Origin: Paracoccaceae bacterium
GTDB lineage: Bacteria > Pseudomonadota > Alphaproteobacteria > Rhodobacterales > Rhodobacteraceae
Direction: 5' to 3'
Length of the DNA stretch: 64,000 nucleotides
Assembly: GCA_022843025.1 (NCBI GenBank)
Contig: JALHOL010000004.1
Location: forward strand, 248,001 to 312,000
Part shown: piece after piece, positions 1 to 9,366 of the stretch
Layout: every line of letters begins with the position of its first letter
Numbering within the stretch: the first letter of the stretch is position 1
Translations under genes and position numbers: made by a program
Notes under the pieces: model-generated
What the model was told of the DNA's origin: nothing
Seen by the model: only the letters and a program-made list of their open reading frames with translations
The model's database searches: none

Positions 1-520
1 CTTCTGCAACCTCGTCCCGCCACGTCGCGCCTTTTGGAAACAGGGCGATGCCCCCTGCCCCGAGATGACTTTGCGCAAAACCAAGTAGCACAGGGAAAGA
101 CGCCAAGGCGCGGGCAGACAGGACATCTGCGTTCTGTGGGGGTGTCGATTCGATTCGATTCGCAAGAATCGTTGGGTTGACGCCAAGGTCACGGCTGGCC
201 TGACGCAGGAAGGTGGCCTTGCGTTGATCCGCCTCTATCATCGTGATGGACAGGTGGGGACGCAGATCTGCGGCTAGGCAGGCGATAGCGAGACCGGGAA
301 AGCCGCCACCGCTGCCCATATCGACCCATTGCCGGGCCGTTGCCGGAGCAAGGTTGAAAAGCTGCGCGGAATCAAGGATGTGGCGATCCCAAGTCTTTTC
401 GACAGTGGATTTTGAGACGAGGTTGATCGCTGGATTCCACTTGGCCAGCAGCGTTTCAAGCCGTTCCAACCGATCCAGCGTTTCACGTGAAACACCGTCG
501 GGCAGTGCATTGACCGTCAT
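1..520 (-). CDS. rsmG: 16S rRNA (guanine-N7)-methyltransferase RsmG (3' end cut by window edge)
   Basis: RsmG methylates G527 of 16S rRNA using S-adenosylmethionine. About 173 N-terminal codons are visible, reading leftward off the window. The N-terminal helix region (…[12 protein letters not shown]…DRHILDS) and the SAM-binding glycine motif [10 protein letters not shown] are both typical of the family. The ATG at 518-520 overlaps the mnmG stop in an ATGA arrangement, so the two genes are translationally coupled. Codons 10-14 (V-S-R-E-T) are spelled by a perfect parS palindrome. In related bacteria parA and parB follow this gene, so they are expected beyond the left edge. Confidence 0.95.
480..493. 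promoter_or_regulatory. parS centromere site 1 (inside rsmG)
   Basis: The 14-bp perfect palindrome GTTTCACGTGAAAC matches the ParB-binding parS consensus exactly. It lies inside the rsmG coding sequence near its 5' end and in frame encodes V-S-R-E-T. ParB loads here and spreads to organise origin segregation. Location about 5 kb from the proposed origin is usual for chromosomal parS. Confidence 0.93.
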
Positions 521-2382
521 GCGCTGGCCTTGTTGCGCTGCGCCTTGCGCAGATGGGCGAGGATAAGCGTCAGTGCGGCTGGCGTCATTCCCTCGATCCG
601 GCCAGCATGGGCGAGTGAGGGCGGGCGTTGGCGGGCGAGTTTGACGCCAAGTTCGTGAGAGAGCCCAGGCATTGCCGCGTAATCCAGATCGTCCGGGAGG
701 ACTGTTTCCTCCTCGCGCTGAAGAAGACGTGCGTCCTGTTCCTGACGGTGGAGGTATTGCGCATAAAGCGCGTCGATGGCGGTTTGTTCGCGGATCGACG
801 CGGGCATAGCGGCAAAGTCGGGAAAAAGCAGATCTACAGCGGGACGCGCTTCTTCACCAAAGGCAAGAAGATCATAGCCGCTGCGCCGCGCGCCATCCTG
901 GCTTACGGTGATTGCCGAACCCGCAAGATCCTTGGATGAGAGGCGCCGCGAATCGAGGATTGTGCGCGCTTGAGCGAGCAGCGCGGTCTTTTGTTCAAAG
1001 GCGCGCGCCCGGGGATCGCGCACGCAGCCAAGGGCAATGCCCATCGGCGTGAGGCGTTGATCGGCGTTGTCGGCGCGCAAAGCGAGGCGGAATTCCGCGC
1101 GGGACGTGAACATCCGATAGGGTTCGGTCACGCCCCGGCTAAGGAGATCGTCGATCATCACACCGATGTAACTGTCGGTCCGGGACAATGTGATCGGATC
1201 GCGATCCAATGCCCGTGCTGCCGCATTCAAACCGGCAACAAGGCCCTGTGCGGCTGCCTCTTCATAGCCAGTTGTCCCATTGATCTGGCCCGCGAAGTAC
1301 AAGCCGGGGCAATCGCGCAGTTCAAGCGTATGTCGCAAACAGCGAGGATCGAAATAGTCGTATTCGATCGCGTAACCGGGCTGGAGAATTGTAACGTTTT
1401 CAAGCCCCTGAATAGACCGGACATAGTCTTGCTGCACCTGAGCAGGGAGAGAGGTTGAGATACCATTGGGATAGACGGTGTCGTCGTCGAGCCCTTCAGG
1501 TTCAAGGAAAACCTGATGCGAGGTCTTGTCGGAAAAGCGCACGACCTTGTCTTCAATCGACGGGCAGTAGCGAGGACCTACGCCTTCGATATGGCCGCCA
1601 TACATTGCGGAGCGGTCAAGATTGGCGCGGACGATGTCATGCGTTTGTTCGTTCGTATGCGTGATGCCGCAGCTGATCTGGCGGGCTTCGGGTGCCGTGC
1701 TGAGGAAGGAAAACAGAACCGGGTCTTCATCGCCGGGCTGCATTTCCAGCCTGTCCCAGTCGATCGTCTTGCCCGACAGTCGCGGTGGTGTGCCGGTTTT
1801 CAGGCGCCCGCGCGGCAGGTCCATCTCAGCCAGCCGCATGGCAAGGGGAACCGCCGGGCGATCGCCCATCCGGCCACCGGGCTGTTGTTGATCGCCGATA
1901 TGGATCAAGCCGTTCAGGAATGTGCCCGCTGTCAGGATGACCGCCGCCGCATCAATCCGGCTGCCATCCTGAAGAATGACGCCCGTCACTTGCCCGGTGC
2001 TGCGGATCAGATCGATGACTTCCCCTTCGACAACTTGGAGCAGCGGTTCTGCGGACAGTAGGCGCTGCATGGCTTGCCGATAACGCTTGCGGTCGGCTTG
2101 TGCGCGGGGGCCCTGCACTGCGGGGCCTTTCCGGCGGTTCAGCAGCCGGAACTGGATGCCCGCGCTATCTGCCGCGCGCGCCATGACACCATCCAATGCA
2201 TCAATCTCACGCACCAGATGGCCTTTACCCAAGCCACCAATCGCAGGGTTGCAGGACATGACCCCGATCGCATCCGCGCGCAGCGTGACCAGGGCGGTCC
2301 GTGCCCCCATGCGCGCGGCCGCAGCGGCCGCTTCCGATCCGGCATGGCCGCCGCCGATGACGATGACATCAAACTGTTTCAC
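517..2382 (-). CDS. mnmG: tRNA uridine-5-carboxymethylaminomethyl modification enzyme MnmG (GidA)
   Basis: MnmG is the FAD-dependent partner of MnmE, installing (carboxymethyl)aminomethyl groups on U34 of certain tRNAs. The 621-residue length is normal. The FAD Rossmann motif G-G-G-H-A-G lies at residues 10-15, the conserved cysteine of SCNPAIGG at residue 44, and the second FAD-site motif [14 protein letters not shown] further on. The start is GTG at 2380-2382, which falls inside a parS palindrome. It sits 11 bp downstream of mnmE and overlaps rsmG by 4 bp, so mnmE-mnmG-rsmG form one operon. Confidence 0.97.
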
Positions 2383-2389
2383 GTGAAAC
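2376..2389. promoter_or_regulatory. parS centromere site 2 (over the mnmG start codon)
   Basis: A second exact GTTTCACGTGAAAC palindrome spans the 11-bp mnmE-mnmG gap and the GTG start codon of mnmG. It matches the ParB consensus at every position. Together with the copy in rsmG it forms a parS pair 1.9 kb apart on the left side of the proposed origin. Confidence 0.93.
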
Positions 2390-2393
2390 GTCC

Positions 2394-3668
2394 TTACTTT
2401 CCGATACAGAAGCTGGAGAAAATCTCATCCAGCAGATTTTCCACATCCACCCTGCCGACCAGAGCTTCGAGGGCGCGGATGGCGATGCGCAGGTCCGCAG
2501 CCGCAAGCTCTGCCCGCGCTGCGCCCTTCTCTATCTCAACCCGCGCCGATTCCATAGCCCCGATCGCCCGTTCAATGGCCAGTCGATGCCGCTCACGCGT
2601 AACAAGCCCGGCACCGGCGCTGCGGGCCAGAAGCCGTTCACCGATGGCTGCAATCAGTTCCGGCACGCCCTGCCCCGTCTTGCCGGACACGCCCTTGCCC
2701 GTGACATCTGCCTTGCCAGGCAGCGTAATGTCGTCGGGCATCGGCATGATCCCCGGAACATCCTCACCGCTTTCCAGAAAGACCCGCAGGTCCGCGGACT
2801 TTGCCCGCTCCAGCGCGCGTTCGATGCCGATCTGTTCAACAGGGTCTGCCGTTTTGCGCAGTCCGGCCGTGTCCAGCAAGGTAACGGCTAGCCCCCCGAT
2901 ATCCATGCGCACTTCGATGACATCGCGCGTGGTTCCGGCGAATTCTGACGTGATCGCCGCATCGCGACCAGCCAAAGCATTTAAAAGCGTCGATTTCCCC
3001 GCATTTGGCGCACCCACGATCGCAACTTCGAACCCGTCACGAATCCGCTCTGCCGCATGTGACCCGGCAACTTCGCGCCGGAGATCCACCAGCACATCAT
3101 GTGTCAGGTCCATGACTTCAGGTGTTACATCCACCGGCACATCTTCATCGGCGAAATCGATTGTCGCTTCGATCAGCGCGGCTGCACGGATCAGCTTTCT
3201 GCGCCATTCCTCTGCCCGCCGGCCAATGGCTCCGGACAGAACCCGCAGCGCCTGCCGCCGCTGCGCCTCTGTCTCGGCGTCGATAAGGTCTGCCAGACCC
3301 TCGACCTGCGCCAGATCCAGCCGCCCGTTTTCCAGCGCCCGCCGGGTAAACTCACCCTGTTCAGCCAAGCGCAACCCGGGTATACCGGACAGGACGCGCA
3401 TCACCGATTGCACCACAGCAAGCGACCCGTGCAGGTGCAGTTCTACCGATGGCTCACCCGTAAAACTTTCCCCGTGCGGAAAGACGACAACAAGGGCCTG
3501 ATCCAGCTCTACCCCGTTCCAGACAAGCCGCCGCAAGGAGGCGCGCCGCGCCGGGGGAAGGTCACCGCACAGCATCACCGCCGCGTCATGCGCCGCCGGG
3601 CCGGACAGGCGCAACACCGCCACCCCGGCCTTGCCGCGCGCGCTGGCCAAGGCATAGATCGTATCCAT
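2394..3668 (-). CDS. mnmE: tRNA modification GTPase MnmE (TrmE)
   Basis: MnmE is the GTPase half of the MnmE-MnmG tRNA U34 modification complex. The 424-residue chain has the folate-binding N-terminal domain, the helical domain, an inserted G domain with P-loop GAPNAGKST (219-227) and G3 motif DTAGLRKT, and the invariant C-terminal tail C-I-G-K with the catalytic cysteine at 421. It is shorter than the roughly 450 residues of gamma-proteobacterial MnmE. The G4 motif, normally N/T-K-x-D, appears to read G-K-A-D. The gene lies 28 bp downstream of rho on the same strand. Confidence 0.96.
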
Positions 3669-3696
3669 TAGGATATAACCCTTTGATTCAGAACAC

Positions 3697-4968
3697 TTAT
3701 GTGTTCATGGAATCGAAGAACTCCGAATTCGACTTTGTCTGTTTCAGCTTGGTCAGCAGGAATTCGATCGCGTCCGTCGTGCCCATCGGGTTCAGGATGC
3801 GGCGCAGGACATAGGTCTTTTGCAGATCGACCTTGTCGACCAAAAGATCCTCTTTCCGCGTGCCGGATTTCAGAATGTCGATGGCCGGGAACACGCGCTT
3901 GTCGGCGACCTTGCGGTCCAGCACGATTTCCGAGTTGCCGGTGCCCTTGAATTCTTCGAAAATCACTTCGTCCATCCGGCTGCCGGTATCGATCAGCGCG
4001 GTGGCGATGATGGTCAACGACCCGCCTTCTTCGATGTTCCGGGCCGCGCCAAAGAACCGCTTGGGTCTTTGCAGGGCGTTCGCATCCACACCACCGGTCA
4101 ACACTTTGCCCGAGGACGGAACGACGGTGTTGAACGCCCGGCCAAGGCGGGTGATAGAGTCGAGCAGGATCACGACGTCGCGCTTGTGTTCCACAAGCCG
4201 CTTGGCCTTTTCGATCACCATTTCGGCCACGGCCACATGGCGCGTTGCCGGTTCGTCAAAGGTTGACGACACGACCTCGCCCTTCACCGATCTTTGCATA
4301 TCTGTCACTTCTTCCGGGCGTTCGTCGATCAGCAGGACGATCAGGTAAATCTCTGGGTGGTTCGTCGCGATGCTGTGGGCGATGTTCTGCAACAAAACCG
4401 TCTTACCCGTCCGCGGCGGGGCAACGATCAGCGCCCGCTGGCCTTTGCCGATGGGGCAGACCAGATCGATGATCCGGGCCGAGCGGTCTTTGATCGTTGG
4501 ATCCTCAATCTCCATCTTCAGCCGCTCATCGGGGTACAGCGGCGTCAGGTTGTCGAAATGCACCTTATGACGGGCGCGTTCGGGATCATCGAAGTTGATC
4601 TTGGTGGCCTTCACCAGGCTGAAATACCGCTCATTCTCACGCGGGGCCTGGATCACGCCTTCGATGGAATCCCCTGTCCGCAGCGAAAACTGGCGGATCA
4701 TTTCGGGGCTGACATAGATATCATCCGGACCGGGCAGATAGTTGGCCGAAGGGCTGCGCAAGAAGCCGAAACCATCTTGCAGCACTTCCAGAACGCCATC
4801 GCCGCCGATCTCGAACCCTTCTTCGGCATGTTCCTTCAGGATCTGGAACATCATCTCGCCCTTCCGCATGGAGGGGGCGTTTTCTATTTCCCACTCCTCG
4901 GCCATGGCCAGAAGATCGGCAGGTGTCTTGGCCTTGAGGTCGGAAAGGTTCAGGCGTTCGGTCGTCAT
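3697..4968 (-). CDS. rho: Transcription termination factor Rho
   Basis: Rho is the hexameric RNA-dependent ATPase that terminates transcription. The chosen ATG at 4968 gives 423 residues starting [11 protein letters not shown], the usual length; an in-frame extension to 5088 has no family resemblance. Visible parts are the N-terminal Rho domain, RNA-binding motif DGFGFLR (65-71), Walker A APPRTGKT (183-190), Walker B with [13 protein letters not shown], and the C-terminal FFDSMNT. The leader contains a perfect 16-bp palindrome, which may matter because rho genes are commonly autoregulated. It probably heads the rho-mnmE-mnmG-rsmG transcript. Confidence 0.97.
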
Positions 4969-5119: not shown

Positions 5120-5569
5120 TCAGAACTTCACGATCACCGAAAAGACGATCACCAGCATCAGCAACGTCGGAACCTCGTTCATCATGCGGTACTGCCGCCC
5201 GGTCACGGTGTTTACACCTGCGATGAAATCCTTTCGGCGCAGTCCAAGCCACATGTGAAACCATGTCATTCCTAGAACGGAAACCGCCTTCAGCCAGGGC
5301 CAGATTTCTGACCACGCTACGATGCCCGGTGTGAATACCAGCGCCAGGCCGAAGATCCAGGTGGCGATCATCGCCGGGTTCATGATCGCTTTCAAAAGCC
5401 GCCGTTCCATCGTCTGGAACAGCGTATCCGTCGGGTTGCCCGATCCCACAACCTCGACATGATAGACGAACAGACGTGGCAAGTAGAACAGCCCGGCCAT
5501 CCAGGCGATCACCGAAACCACATGCAACGATTTGATCCAAGGATACCAGTTCGCCAGAAAATCGCCCAT
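5120..5569 (-). CDS. hemJ: Protoporphyrinogen IX oxidase HemJ
   Basis: HemJ is the membrane-bound protoporphyrinogen IX oxidase used by many alphaproteobacteria instead of HemG/HemY-type oxidases, feeding heme and, where present, bacteriochlorophyll synthesis. Starting at ATG 5569 gives 149 residues (MGDFLANWY…), the normal size. Four hydrophobic segments and the conserved histidine and arginine of [19 protein letters not shown] and FVYHVE are visible, plus [13 protein letters not shown]. It is the first gene left of the putative origin, a slot occupied by hemE in Caulobacter and rhizobia. Confidence 0.92.
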
Positions 5570-6000
5570 CGTTTCACCCGTGCTTCGGTCTTTACCTCTT
5601 CTTCTTATCAATAAGGAATCTAAGAGAGAATGATGATGCAGGCCCTGTGGACAACGGAATTCACGCTGTCATCCCTGCTTTCTTCCACAGGGCGCAGGCT
5701 GTGGATGGATCAGGGAAAACGCTTCATTCAGAACGGCGATTTGAAATAAATTGAATATAAACAATAAATTATGAAAAATCTCCTTGCTGAATTGTCCACA
5801 GGCGGTTGGTCGGCATTGCACCGCTTTCCCGCCCATCCCCAGCCTTTGGAAATTCAAACCCACAGGTGGACAAATCGCCCCATCTGCCCGAACTATCCCC
5901 CGGCGTGATGTGGCCGGGCGTTCGTGTCGAAACTGGCCACAATCGCGCAGCCGGAACAAAAAGAGACTGTCCACAGCTTCACCCCCAAGGACCGATCATC
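5570..6000. other. Putative chromosomal replication origin (oriC)
   Basis: This 431-bp non-coding gap separates divergent gene sets. DnaA-box-like 9-mers occur at 5646-5654 (TGTGGACAA), 5792-5800 (TTGTCCACA), 5865-5873 (GGTGGACAA) and 5967-5975 (CTGTCCACA), with weaker ones at 5681-5689 and 5700-5708. An A+T-rich tract at about 5738-5782 stands out sharply from the GC-rich surroundings and would serve as the unwinding element. Flanking genes run away from it on both sides, and two parS sites lie within 5.5 kb. In several alphaproteobacteria the mapped origin lies beside hem and maf-type genes near parAB. Function is inferred, not proven. Confidence 0.82.
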
Positions 6001-6597
6001 ATGCCCCGACTGATCCTGGCCTCTGCCTCGCCCATCCGCCGCCAGCTTTTGGCACAGGCCGGGGTGCAGGCAGAGGCGATACCCGCGCGGATCGACGAAG
6101 ATCAGGTCCGCGCCGCGCTGGAGGCGGAGGGGGCGAAGCCGCGCGATGTGGCGGATGCGCTGGCCGAGATGAAAGCCCGCAAGCTGGCCGAACGTCATCT
6201 TGATGCAGTGGTGATCGGCTGCGATCAGGTGTTGGAGTTCGAAGGTCAGGTTTGGGGCAAGGCGGGAACGCCTGATGCAGCGCGGGCACAGTTGATGGCG
6301 CTGCGTGGCAAAAGTCACAGGCTGATCTCGGCGGTCGTGTTATATGAGCAGGCAAAGCCCGTCTGGCGGCATGTGGGGGAGGTCAGGCTGACGATGCGTG
6401 TGTTTTCGGACGAGTATCTTGAAGGGTATCTGGAGCGAAACTGGGACGAGGTCCGCCATTCGGTGGGCTGCTACCAACTGGAAGCGGAAGGTCTGCGCCT
6501 TTTCTCCGATGTGCAGGGCGATTATTTCACCGTTCTTGGCCTGCCGCTTCTTCCGCTTTTGAACCATCTTGGACAGCGGGGTTTCATTCCGGCATGA
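6001..6597 (+). CDS. maf: Maf-family nucleotide pyrophosphatase
   Basis: Maf proteins are house-cleaning nucleoside triphosphate pyrophosphatases acting on dTTP/UTP or modified nucleotides. The start at ATG 6001, with AAGGA about 10 nt upstream, gives 198 residues beginning [17 protein letters not shown], the canonical Maf N-terminus with S-A-S-x-x-R. The family motif with the catalytic aspartate is seen as [13 protein letters not shown] longer in-frame reading back to 5806 would run through the origin region and is rejected. The stop overlaps the aroE start (ATGA), and the gene opens a rightward operon maf-aroE-coaE-dnaQ. Confidence 0.9.
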
Positions 6598-7433
6598 CCG
6601 ACCATCCCCGCATCCCGCTTGCCGCTGTCATCGGATCGCCCATAGCGCATAGCCGGTCACCTGCCCTGCATGGCTATTGGCTGAAACGCTATGGAATCAA
6701 GGGATTCTATATCCCGATGGATGTGGCGCAGGCCGATCTTGCCACAGTGCTGCGCACGCTGCCCAAAATGGGGTTTGTCGGCGCGAATGTGACGATCCCG
6801 CACAAGGAGGCGATCCTTCAGATTGCGGATGTGATCTCGGATCGTGCCGCGCTGATCGGGGCGGCGAATACGCTGATCTTTCGCAAGGACGGGAAGATTC
6901 AGGCCGACAATACGGATGGTGCGGGGTTCATCGCCAATCTGCGCCAGAACGCGCCACACTGGGTGCCGTCCAGCGGCCCGGCGGCCGTGTTCGGTGCGGG
7001 CGGTGCCGCGCGCGCAGTGATCGCGGCACTGATCGAAGTGGGCGTGCCGGAAATTCGCCTTGCCAACCGGACCCGTGCCCGTGCGGATGCGCTGCGGTCG
7101 GATTTCGGGGCCAAGGTGCATGTGCAGGAATGGGTGCAGGCCGACGCCATGATCGACGGCGCGGCCACGGTTGTGAACACCACATCGCTGGGCATGACGG
7201 GCAAACCCGATCTGGTTTTGCCATTGGGGTCGCTGTCGCCGCAGGCTTTGGTGACCGATCTGGTCTATACCCCGCTGAAGACCCAGTTCCTGATCGAAGC
7301 TGAGGAGCGCGGCGCCACGGTGGTGGATGGTCTGGGTATGTTGCTGCATCAGGCCGCGCCCGGATTTGAACGCTGGTTCGGCCAGCGCCCCGAGGTGGAT
7401 GAGGCGACGCGCGCCGCGGTGATGGCGGCATGA
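6594..7433 (+). CDS. aroE: Shikimate dehydrogenase AroE
   Basis: AroE reduces 3-dehydroshikimate to shikimate with NADPH in aromatic amino acid biosynthesis. The 279-residue protein shows the shikimate-binding serines of SRSPALH (20, 22), the catalytic lysine of TIPHK (71), N92 and D108 of NTDGAGF, and the nucleotide-binding GAGGAARAV loop. It overlaps maf by 4 bp at its start and coaE by 4 bp at its end, so translation of the three is probably coupled. Confidence 0.95.
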
Positions 7434-8023
7434 GGCCGTTTCGTCTTGGCCTGACCGGGTCTATCGGCATGGGCAAATCGACCACCGCAGCGATGTTCTT
7501 GGAAGAAGGCATTCCCGTCTGGGATGCAGATGCCGCGGTACATCGGCTCTATGCGCCCGGCGGGGCGGCGGTCGCGCCTTTGGCGGCACTTTGCCCGGCG
7601 GCACTGCGCGACGGCGGGATCGACCGTGCTGCGCTGAAGGACTGGATCGCCACCGACGCATCTGCGCTGGCGCGGATCGAGGCAGTGGTGCATCCCCTGG
7701 TGGCGGCGGACAGGGCGGTGTTTCTGGACGGGACCAGTTCAGACATCGTGGTGCTGGATATTCCCCTGCTGTTTGAGAAGGGATCCGAGGCCGAGATGGA
7801 CGCAACCCTGCTGGTCACCGCCCCGCCCGAGGTGCAGCGCGCCCGGGTGATGGCCCGCCCCGGCATGACCGAGGCGCAGTTCGCCACAATTCTCGCCCGA
7901 CAGATGCCCGATGCTGACAAACGCGCGCGGGCGACGCATATCATTGAAACCCTAAGCGTCGATGCGGCCCGCGCCGCTGTGCGCGCGTTGATTGCCCATA
8001 TACGGAAAACCCACCATGCGTGA
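7430..8023 (+). CDS. coaE: Dephospho-CoA kinase CoaE
   Basis: CoaE phosphorylates dephospho-CoA, the last step of coenzyme A synthesis. The 197-residue length fits. The P-loop GSIGMGKST lies at residues 10-18, and the conserved segments [19 protein letters not shown] and the R-x-x-x-R lid region ([10 protein letters not shown]) are present. Its 3' end overlaps dnaQ by 8 bp. The order maf-aroE-coaE-dnaQ is conserved next to the origin across alphaproteobacteria. Confidence 0.94.
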
Positions 8024-8720
8024 GATCGTTCTGGACACCGAAACCACCGGTTTTGAACCGACCGAGGGCCACCGCATCGTGGAGATCGGGGCGGTGGAGT
8101 TGTTCAATCACCTGCCCACGGGTCGCACCTATCACCAATACATCAACCCCGAACGCGGCATGCCGAAAGAAGCGTTTGAGGTGCATGGTCTGGGCGATGA
8201 TTTCCTGCGTGACAAACCGGTGTTCAAGGCGGTGGGTCAGGCGTTTCTTGATTTCATCGGCGATGCGAAACTGGTCATCCACAACGCCGCCTTTGACATG
8301 AAGTTTCTGAATGCCGAACTGGAATGGGCGGGCCTGCCCGGCCTGCCCAATGACCGTGCGGTGGATACGCTGATGATCGCGCGCAAGCGGTTTCCGGGAT
8401 CGCCCGCCTCGCTTGATGCGCTGTGCCGCCGGTTCGGGGTGGATAATTCGGCGCGGGAAAAGCACGGGGCGCTGCTGGACAGCGAAATTCTGGCCGAGGT
8501 CTATCTTGAACTGGTGGGCGGGCGGCAGCCGGATTTTGGGCTGTCGGCAGCATCCAACAATCAGCCAGCCGGCCAGCAACGGACCGGCGCAGATGATGTG
8601 TGGCGTCCCCGCCCTCGCCCTGCCCCATTGCCGCCCCGGATCAGTGAAGACGAGGCCGCCCGACATGCGGCTTTTGTCGCCAAGCTGGGCGATGGGGCGA
8701 TATGGAAAAAGCGCGCCTGA
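8016..8720 (+). CDS. dnaQ: DNA polymerase III epsilon subunit (proofreading exonuclease)
   Basis: DnaQ supplies 3'-5' proofreading to the replicative polymerase. From ATG 8016 the protein has 234 residues beginning [12 protein letters not shown]. ExoI acidic residues are D7 and E9, ExoII is seen as [14 protein letters not shown], and ExoIII as the H-x4-D of HGALLD, the DEDDh arrangement. The C-terminal tail after about residue 180 is the expected alpha-subunit-binding linker. A start 24 nt upstream is possible but extends without family similarity. A strong bidirectional terminator follows. Confidence 0.94.
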
Positions 8721-8753: not shown

Positions 8754-9281
8754 TCAGTTGATCGGAGTGGCCGATGCCTGTGCGGCCTGCGCTGCCTGAG
8801 CGCGGCGAGCAAGCTCTTGCCGGTAGAGCGTCACGAAATCGACCGTGTCGATGTTCAGCGGCGGGAAGCCACCATCGCGCGTCACGTCGGAAATGATGCG
8901 GCGCACAAAGGGGAACACCAGACGCGGGCATTCGATCAGCAGGAAGGGGTGAAGCTGTTCTTCCGGCACACCTTCAACATGGAAGATCGCGCCATATTCG
9001 ACTTCAAGCAGGAACAGGGTTTCGCCGTTCGTCTTGTTCTTTGACGTGCAGCGATATTTCGAGATCACGTCATACTGGTGGTCGGCCGGGCGCTTGCGGG
9101 CGTCCAGGCTGACGGCGACCTGGATATCGGGCTGCACATCGGCGCCCGAGATGCCCTTTTTGGCCACCATGTTTTCAAACGACATGTCGCGGATGAACTG
9201 CGCCAGAACCTGCATCCGGACTTGCGGCTGTGCGGCGTCAGTCGCGGCTTCGGGTTTCGGGGCGGTGGTTTCGTCGGCCAT
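8754..9281 (-). CDS. secB: Protein-export chaperone SecB
   Basis: SecB is the tetrameric cytosolic chaperone that keeps preproteins unfolded and hands them to SecA. The ATG at 9281 has GAGGAG 8 nt upstream and gives 175 residues (MADETTAPKPEA…); a GTG 9 nt earlier lacks room for that ribosome site. The conserved core includes VLAQFIRDMSFEN, VEYGAIFHVEG and LLIECPRLVFPFVR, followed by the GGFPPL strand. It is convergent with dnaQ. Confidence 0.95.
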   Translation of the reverse strand: MADETTAPKPEAATDAAQPQVRMQVLAQFIRDMSFENMVAKKGISGADVQPDIQVAVSLDARKRPADHQYDVISKYRCTSKNKTNGETLFLLEVEYGAIFHVEGVPEEQLHPFLLIECPRLVFPFVRRIISDVTRDGGFPPLNIDTVDFVTLYRQELARRAQAAQAAQASATPIN

Positions 9282-9366
9282 TCCTGTCACTCCTCGTCAA
9301 TCCTTGGGGGCGTCCTGGGGTTGGCCCCGGGGTTGACGGCGTTCCTAGCAGGAAGGTGGCGCTGCC

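What the first reader, a model, noticed from the sequence alone, without database searches (positions are those of the whole stretch)
5570..6000. Putative chromosomal replication origin in the hemJ-maf gap
The gap combines four good and two weaker DnaA-box-like 9-mers (TGTGGACAA, TTGTCCACA, GGTGGACAA, CTGTCCACA and relatives), a roughly 45-bp A+T-rich tract in a GC-rich chromosome, outward gene orientation on both sides, and parS sites 3-5 kb away. hemJ occupies the place of hemE beside the origin of Caulobacter and rhizobia. Most boxes have G where the classical TTATCCACA has A, a possible lineage-specific DnaA box.
Basis: partly seen in the sequence, partly recalled or inferred. Interest (0 to 1): 0.72.

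Follow-up and report, generated by a model that had tools for sequence, protein, structure and literature searches.

The report
Chromosome replication origin beside maf
The short gap between the genes hemJ and maf is very probably where this bacterium starts copying its chromosome; it is an ordinary origin at a place already known for its family, but the usual base-composition signal does not point to it in this genus.

Summary
The 431-bp hemJ-maf gap (5570-6000) holds two exact and two one-mismatch TTRTCCACA boxes (0 of 5000 shuffles reach either count) and the two least stable 46-bp stretches of the 64-kb window. The six named boxes recur at aligned places, with at most two mismatches, in 13 to 17 of 17 genus gaps. 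79 of 80 fetched loci keep a divergent hemJ/maf gap of 367-503 bp, with TTRTCCACA about 500 times denser than in the flanks. parAB and two parS-like sites lie within 8 kb. Eleven segments inverted across the gap between species mirror about a centre 12 kb from it (4 of 100,000 permutations as tight). In a Maritimibacter chromosome, KOPS polarity switches at the gap.

Against: sampled GC skew has no chromosome-scale minimum here in this species or four congeners. I read this as the result of rearrangement.

Verdict: a DnaA-dependent oriC at the maf-adjacent site that a paper citing DoriC calls conserved in Rhodobacteraceae (PMC4793288). The G-type boxes are not lineage-specific. Ordinary, apart from the decoupled skew.

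The parts
5570..6000 (.). oriC candidate: hemJ-maf intergenic gap, 431 bp
5646..5654 (-). DnaA box 1, TTGTCCACA, facing the hemJ-side A+T tract
   Evidence: exact TTRTCCACA; at most 2 mismatches at the aligned place in 17 of 17 genus gaps; a hemJ-side minus-strand box with at most 2 mismatches in 79 of 80 gaps
5681..5689 (+). weak DnaA box 2, TCTTCCACA
   Evidence: 2 mismatches; at most 2 mismatches in 15 of 17
5700..5708 (-). weak DnaA box 3, CCATCCACA
   Evidence: 2 mismatches; at most 2 mismatches in 16 of 17
5792..5800 (+). DnaA box 4, TTGTCCACA
   Evidence: exact; at most 2 mismatches in 13 of 17, the least conserved of the six
5865..5873 (-). DnaA box 5, TTGTCCACC (top strand GGTGGACAA)
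   Evidence: 1 mismatch; at most 2 mismatches in 17 of 17, at most 1 in 15
5967..5975 (+). DnaA box 6, CTGTCCACA, by the maf start
   Evidence: 1 mismatch; at most 2 mismatches in 17 of 17, seven invariant columns
5589..5634 (.). candidate unwinding element on the hemJ side, second least stable 46 bp of the window
   Evidence: A-rich majority letters beside box 1 in the alignment of 80 gaps
5626..5637 (+). DnaA-trio-like run: four NAN triplets, 8-bp spacer from box 1
   Evidence: enrichment over shuffles is modest
5739..5784 (.). A+T-rich tract, least stable 46 bp of the window, second candidate unwinding element
5120..5569 (-). hemJ
   Evidence: TIGR00701, 134.7 bits, just under its cut-off of 138.05
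6001..6597 (+). maf (nucleotide pyrophosphatase family)
   Evidence: TIGR00172 above cut-off
479..494 (+). parS-like site
   Evidence: 1 mismatch to a recalled consensus
2375..2390 (+). parS-like site
   Evidence: 1 mismatch to a recalled consensus
517..4965 (-). mnmG, mnmE, rho (neighbouring cluster)
6594..8720 (+). aroE, coaE, dnaQ (neighbouring cluster)
8754..9290 (-). secB

Best explanation
The gap is the chromosomal replication origin (oriC) of this Rhodobacteraceae chromosome. DnaA binds the conserved boxes; from the hemJ-side box (5646-5654) it is likely to extend onto the adjacent A-rich tract (about 5589-5637) and open the duplex. The central A+T tract (5739-5784) is the alternative or additional opening site. 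Helicase loading then sets up two forks, running towards rho/parAB on one side and maf/dnaQ on the other. ParB bound at the nearby parS sites then moves the duplicated origins apart. Shown here: the sequence elements, their conservation, the gene neighbourhood, and the mirror symmetry of inversions about the site. Inferred: DnaA binding, strand opening, helicase loading, ParB binding and initiation itself.
For: 0 of 5000 shuffles match the box counts; the two weakest 46-bp stretches of 64 kb are both in the gap. Best box cluster (TTRTNCACA scoring) of about 919 kb scanned: the own contig C4 plus 515 kb of the same-species chromosome G011, partly the same sequence. Only close pair of TTRTCCACA among 29 in the own genome. 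Every one of 17 genus gaps has 2 to 7 boxes with at most one mismatch. TTRTCCACA 69 in 32.9 kb of gaps against 6 in 1463 kb of flanks over 79 loci; 74 of 79 gaps have at least two boxes with at most one mismatch, all 79 at least one. Neighbourhood parB-parA-rsmG-mnmG-mnmE-rho-hemJ | maf-aroE-coaE-dnaQ. Mirror segments between this species and G018/G002: 11 segments, median centre -12 kb from the gap, 4 of 100,000 permutations as tight. Maritimibacter G020: KOPS-type octamers 5 plus / 62 minus in 17 stretches on the lower-coordinate (maf-side) arm and 46 plus / 10 minus in 13 stretches on the other (hemJ-side) arm; the switch lies between the 1.77-1.78 and 1.81-1.82 Mb stretches around the gap at 1.793 Mb, and skew turns from mostly negative to mostly positive. 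Literature: oriC beside maf stated to be conserved in Rhodobacteraceae (passage of PMC4793288).
Against: GC skew, strong and strand-wise at four-fold sites, has no chromosome-scale minimum at the gap in C4 or in the sampled G011. It is positive on both sides out to about +38 kb, with ori-like changes (minus to plus) near 4.14 Mb and 0.46-0.54 Mb of G011, about 420 kb left and 125-205 kb right of the gap. In window orientation the samples of G002, G007 and G018 are negative or near zero on both sides of the gap; G004 is positive on the left like G011. G019 is flat. KOPS-type polarity near the gap is weak on C4: GGGNAGGG left 26 plus / 44 minus, right 23 / 31; GGGCAGGG left 14 / 38, right 21 / 21; cumulative minima 55 and 105 kb to the right. 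No exact IHF or CtrA consensus in the gap. A dif pattern was found in 0 of 3 genomes, so the terminus rests on KOPS alone. 33 of the 79 gaps have no exact TTRTCCACA.
Confidence: 0.92

Rival explanations
1. The real origin lies at a GC-skew minimum elsewhere: about 125-205 kb to the maf side (G011 0.46-0.54 Mb) or about 420 kb to the hemJ side (G011 4.14 Mb). The gap is then a relic or a secondary DnaA-binding site.
For: Skew signs in G011, G000 and G004, and in the samples of G002, G007 and G018 out to +105..+157 kb. With the terminus near 2.52-2.60 Mb, arms would be more even for an origin near 0.47 Mb than for the gap. On C4 the cumulative KOPS minima lie 55 and 105 kb to the maf side.
Against: Mirror symmetry is centred near the gap: correlation of distances 0.93 at 0, 0.84 at +50, 0.70 at +75 and 0.22 at +150 kb (the median mismatch is no lower at 0 than at plus or minus 25 kb, so it resolves tens of kb, not the gap itself). 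No box cluster as strong in the stretches scanned: best scores 3.2 (0.40-0.62 Mb) and 4.0 (4.04-4.14 Mb) against 5.2, the 4.0 one in GC-rich sequence that looks coding. In G011, octamers in the sampled stretches between 4.15 and 0.32 Mb are 27 plus / 54 minus, the wrong way for an origin at 4.14 Mb. In G002 the skew change falls between two samples that are not neighbours in this species, i.e. at a synteny break. The boxes of the gap are kept across the genus.
Confidence: 0.05
2. The gap is a DnaA-titration or DnaA-regulated divergent promoter region for hemJ and maf, not an origin.
For: Divergent genes share the gap; DnaA boxes also occur at regulated promoters (recalled knowledge).
Against: Several boxes with two weak-duplex tracts, par next door, and inversions mirrored about the spot are not expected of a promoter. 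The switch of KOPS polarity around the gap in G020 speaks for an origin.
Confidence: 0.03

Closest known systems
Predicted oriC of Rhodobacteraceae (DoriC/Ori-Finder), e.g. Ketogulonicigenium vulgare Hbe602, beside maf (PMC4793288)
   Same: Position next to maf, DnaA boxes, intergenic; by that paper conserved in the family
   Different: In this genus the GC skew does not mark the site; the stronger boxes here are TTG-type
Caulobacter crescentus Cori (hemE-COG1806), as described in PMC1914354
   Same: Intergenic DnaA-box cluster with an A+T-rich stretch
   Different: Flanks differ (hemJ/maf; hemE on another contig, no COG1806 found); no exact CtrA or IHF consensus in the gap
Basal unwinding system (DnaA box, spacer, DnaA-trios), PMC8287927
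   Same: Box 1, 8-bp spacer and four NAN triplets fit the published search pattern
   Different: Triplets read 3'-TAG/TAG/TAA/GAG rather than 3'-GAT, and the pattern is loose: at least 4 trios in 24 of 79 gaps against 16% of shuffles

Membership tests
DnaA-dependent bacterial oriC, maf-adjacent Rhodobacteraceae type | Cluster of DnaA boxes above chance | tested here: met
DnaA-dependent bacterial oriC, maf-adjacent Rhodobacteraceae type | Easily melted A+T-rich stretch beside the boxes | tested here: met
   two weakest 46-bp stretches of the window; melting itself not tested
DnaA-dependent bacterial oriC, maf-adjacent Rhodobacteraceae type | Place next to maf, with parAB near | tested here: met
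   literature passages
DnaA-dependent bacterial oriC, maf-adjacent Rhodobacteraceae type | GC-skew minimum at the site (a usual correlate, not a defining feature) | tested here: not met
   own species and genus; roughly met in the family member G020
DnaA-dependent bacterial oriC, maf-adjacent Rhodobacteraceae type | Rearrangements mirrored about the site (a correlate) | tested here: met
   resolution tens of kb
DnaA-dependent bacterial oriC, maf-adjacent Rhodobacteraceae type | Initiation of replication at the site | not testable with these tools
   needs marker frequency or a plasmid assay
Caulobacter-type Cori | hemE and COG1806 as boundary genes | tested here: not met
   hemE at C5:379353, PF03618 not found
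Caulobacter-type Cori | CtrA and IHF sites | tested here: not met
   no exact match to recalled consensus patterns; degenerate sites not excluded
Basal unwinding system (DnaA-trios) | DnaA box, spacer of 0-16 bp, at least three NAN triplets | tested here: inconclusive
   pattern present, but at least 3 trios occur in 41% of shuffles

The most novel reading that the evidence does not exclude
In this genus, replication starts not only, or not mainly, at the gap. A second or relocated initiation site at one of the nearby skew minima (about 125-205 kb or about 420 kb away) would explain why strong, replication-type GC skew has the wrong sign in blocks around a conserved oriC.
Probability: 0.05. 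Interest if true: 0.6.

Novelty: new member of a known kind. Interest (0 to 1): 0.22.

Why it matters
It places the origin of a chromosome, and probably of its genus, where the standard GC-skew method points elsewhere. It shows that conserved boxes, the par neighbourhood and mirror-symmetric inversions can give the answer when skew fails. As a biological entity it is ordinary. The separation of skew from origin in a genus with strong skew is the part worth a marker-frequency experiment.

Tried and rejected
GC skew as locator: failed in the own species and genus. KOPS-type octamers as fine locator: too sparse near the origin; one search lists only the first 100 plus-strand places, so it was not used for counts. 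G-rich words learned from the arms only restate the skew. dif search with a recalled E. coli-type 26-mer, up to 3 mismatches: 0 of 3 genomes. The idea that the reversed skew comes from gene orientation was rejected: four-fold sites of plus and minus genes give opposite sense skews in the strongly skewed stretches. Lineage-specific G-type box rejected. DnaA-trios left open. A pair of exact TTRTNCACA boxes at G011 4,043,631 was rejected as a rival: GC-rich sequence that looks coding. The intergenic ranking used crude gene calls that cut the gap short (253089-253805) and is given no weight beyond rank. The average skew profile over the 79 loci, negative just left of the gap and slightly positive just right of it, and the local dip were not used, as gene direction changes there.

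Papers: PMC1914354, PMC8116508, PMC7901474, PMC6699656, PMC6315104, PMC3794950, PMC8287927 and PMC4793288 were seen as passages only; all others as search listings. The Brassinga papers were seen only as references inside PMC1914354; one was asked for and is not held.

Full report
WHERE IT IS. The window is bases 248001-312000 of contig C4 (403,647 bp) of a draft genome of 3.90 Mb in 22 contigs. A contig of a genome in the same genus (G005:C56) has the same length and hemJ coordinates as AYNO01000056.1, titled Rhodobacter sp. CACIA14H1, so the genus belongs to the Rhodobacteraceae (inference). A one-contig chromosome of the same species, G011 (4,225,158 bp), carries the region at 334492-335992 with 98% identity. 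The only match to the DnaA family in the own genome is 68 kb to the left of the gap.

Between hemJ (5120-5569, -) and maf (6001-6597, +) lie two exact and two one-mismatch TTRTCCACA boxes and several weaker ones. None of 5000 dinucleotide shuffles reaches the exact count or the one-mismatch count. The two least stable 46-bp stretches of the whole window (5739-5784 and 5589-5634) are both in the gap. In the own genome 29 TTRTCCACA occur, against 15 of the reversed control; the only pair closer than 1 kb is this one. A scan with TTRTNCACA of C4 plus 515 kb of G011 (about 919 kb, partly the same sequence) ranks the gap first, 5.2 against 4.0 for the next; the runner-up is GC-rich and looks coding.

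CONSERVATION. I aligned 17 genus gaps: the window and 16 others. Of 19 genomes searched, 18 had a match; G010 had none, and G008's was only a 29-base hit, so neither was aligned. Mean column identity is 56%. Of these 80, 79 have a divergent maf next to hemJ with a gap of 367-503 bp; in the other one hemJ begins 207 bp from the end of the locus and no maf was found. TTRTCCACA occurs 69 times in 32.9 kb of gaps and 6 times in 1463 kb of flanks. 33 of the 79 gaps have no exact TTRTCCACA, but 74 have at least two boxes with at most one mismatch and all have at least one. Box types are TTA 43, TTT 33, TTG 26 and TTC 12, so the G of the window is one of several variants. In the alignment of 80 gaps the majority letters beside the hemJ-side box are an A-rich run and GATGATGATG; exact GATGATG is there in 38 of 80, and in 14 of 17 genus gaps. 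A hemJ-side box of that orientation (at most two mismatches) is present in 79 of 80.

NEIGHBOURHOOD. Reading left to right: parB, parA, rsmG (left of the window, C4:246184-248520), mnmG, mnmE, rho, hemJ, the gap, maf, aroE, coaE, dnaQ, secB (the ParA and ParB assignments rest on family hits, ParB above the cut-off of the ParB domain model, ParA below the cut-offs of its models). Two parS-like 16-mers with one mismatch lie 5.1 and 3.2 kb from the gap. In passages seen, parAB is suggested as an anchor for curating alphaproteobacterial origins (PMC8116508). Rhodobacteraceae origins were curated by Ori-Finder plus GC-disparity minimum and parAB (PMC6699656), and oriC beside maf is stated to be conserved in the family according to DoriC (PMC4793288).

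THE RESULT AGAINST IT. Cumulative GC skew has no minimum at the gap beyond a local dip of a few kb. On C4 most 8-kb bins from 24 to 280 kb are positive (64-72 kb is negative, and the bin holding the gap is near zero) and those from 296 to 392 kb are negative; the cumulative maximum is at 291,777, 38 kb right of the gap. In the G011 samples skew is negative from 2.7 to 4.14 Mb, mostly positive from 4.15 Mb through 0.30-0.32 Mb, negative from 0.40 to 0.46 Mb, mixed to 0.54 Mb, then mostly positive to 1.8 Mb with some reversed stretches. It is not an effect of gene direction: four-fold sites in plus and minus genes give opposite sense skews in the strongly skewed stretches. In window orientation the samples of G002, G007 and G018 are negative or near zero on both sides of the gap and stay so to +105, +147 and +157 kb on the maf side; G004 resembles G011 on the left and turns negative between about +12 and +42 kb.

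WHY I STILL PLACE THE ORIGIN IN THE GAP. First, rearrangements. Of 240 tiles of about 2.5 kb from G018, G002, G004 and G007, 180 match the reference stretches and 67 lie on the other side of the gap. The 32 of these that are also inverted imply a centre at -12.5 kb (10-90%: -19 to +6 kb); agreement of distances between species is best with the centre at the gap (correlation 0.93, against 0.22 at +150 kb), although the median mismatch is slightly smaller at plus or minus 25 kb than at 0. Grouped by hand into 11 segments (8 from G018, 3 from G002), the mirror fit was reached in 4 of 100,000 permutations. Inversions mirrored about the origin are the known pattern (recalled). The other 35 cross tiles (21 in G018 and G002, 14 in G007) moved without inversion and do not test the centre; such moves would leave blocks of wrong skew sign. 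Coordinates were taken relative to the gap, which helps a centre near zero in the correlation test but not in the permutation. Second, polarity. In the G011 samples the octamer GGGNAGGG is mostly minus from 2.6 to 4.14 Mb and mostly plus from 0.6 to 2.52 Mb; in samples between 4.15 and 0.32 Mb it is 27 plus / 54 minus (P = 0.004), and from 0.40 to 0.62 Mb 42 / 29 (P = 0.15). This puts the origin roughly in 0.2-0.5 Mb and the terminus between 2.52 and 2.60 Mb. On C4 alone the signal is weak and its minima lie 55 and 105 kb right of the gap. Third, a relative. In Maritimibacter ih11 (G020), where hemJ lies on the higher-coordinate side of the gap, 30 sampled stretches give 5 plus / 62 minus on the lower-coordinate arm (17 stretches, counting the two beyond the apparent terminus between 3.82 and 4.10 Mb) and 46 / 10 on the other arm (13). 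The switch lies between stretches at 1.77-1.78 and 1.81-1.82 Mb, around its gap at 1.793 Mb. The GC skew, though weak, is negative in 11 of the 15 stretches below the gap and positive in 12 of the 13 between the gap and 3.82 Mb. In QY30 (G019) the skew is flat and tells nothing. A passage of PMC1914354 also says that skew was insufficient to find the origin in several alphaproteobacteria.

MECHANISM. DnaA on the boxes opens the duplex. Box 1 (5646-5654) points at the hemJ-side A-rich tract with an 8-bp spacer and four NAN triplets (5626-5637), which fits the published search pattern of the basal unwinding system (PMC8287927). But at least four triplets occur in 24 of 79 gaps against 16% of shuffles, so this is suggestive only. 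The central tract 5739-5784 is the weaker duplex of the two and could be the opening site instead. No exact IHF or CtrA consensus is present. The Caulobacter boundary genes do not apply: hemE is on contig C5 and no COG1806 domain was found. Binding, opening and initiation are inferred.

NOVELTY. The kind and the place are known; this is a new member. What a specialist might want to follow is the mismatch between strong skew and origin position in this genus.

Noticed in passing
window 1-64000 (C4:24000-384000) and G011 4.14-0.54 Mb: Strong replication-type GC skew with the wrong sign in blocks around the origin, while KOPS-type octamers mostly keep their expected polarity along the arms; similar reversed samples in the right arm of G011 at 1.5, 1.9, 2.1, 2.3 and 2.4 Mb.
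   Followed up: partly
G011 4.13-4.15 Mb and G018 C1 2.29-2.34 Mb: The same gene locus carries a skew sign change in both species although it lies on opposite sides of the gap in them.
   Followed up: partly
window 5967-5987 region in relatives (maf side): The majority letters of the 80-gap alignment next to maf read TTATCCACAGAGTTATCCACA, a tandem pair of boxes; in the window only the first is recognisable, with one mismatch.
   Followed up: no
G002 C1, C2, C3: Five equally scoring weak DnaA-domain matches (278-aa frames, below cut-off) on three contigs, perhaps the ATPase helper of an insertion sequence (guess).
   Followed up: no
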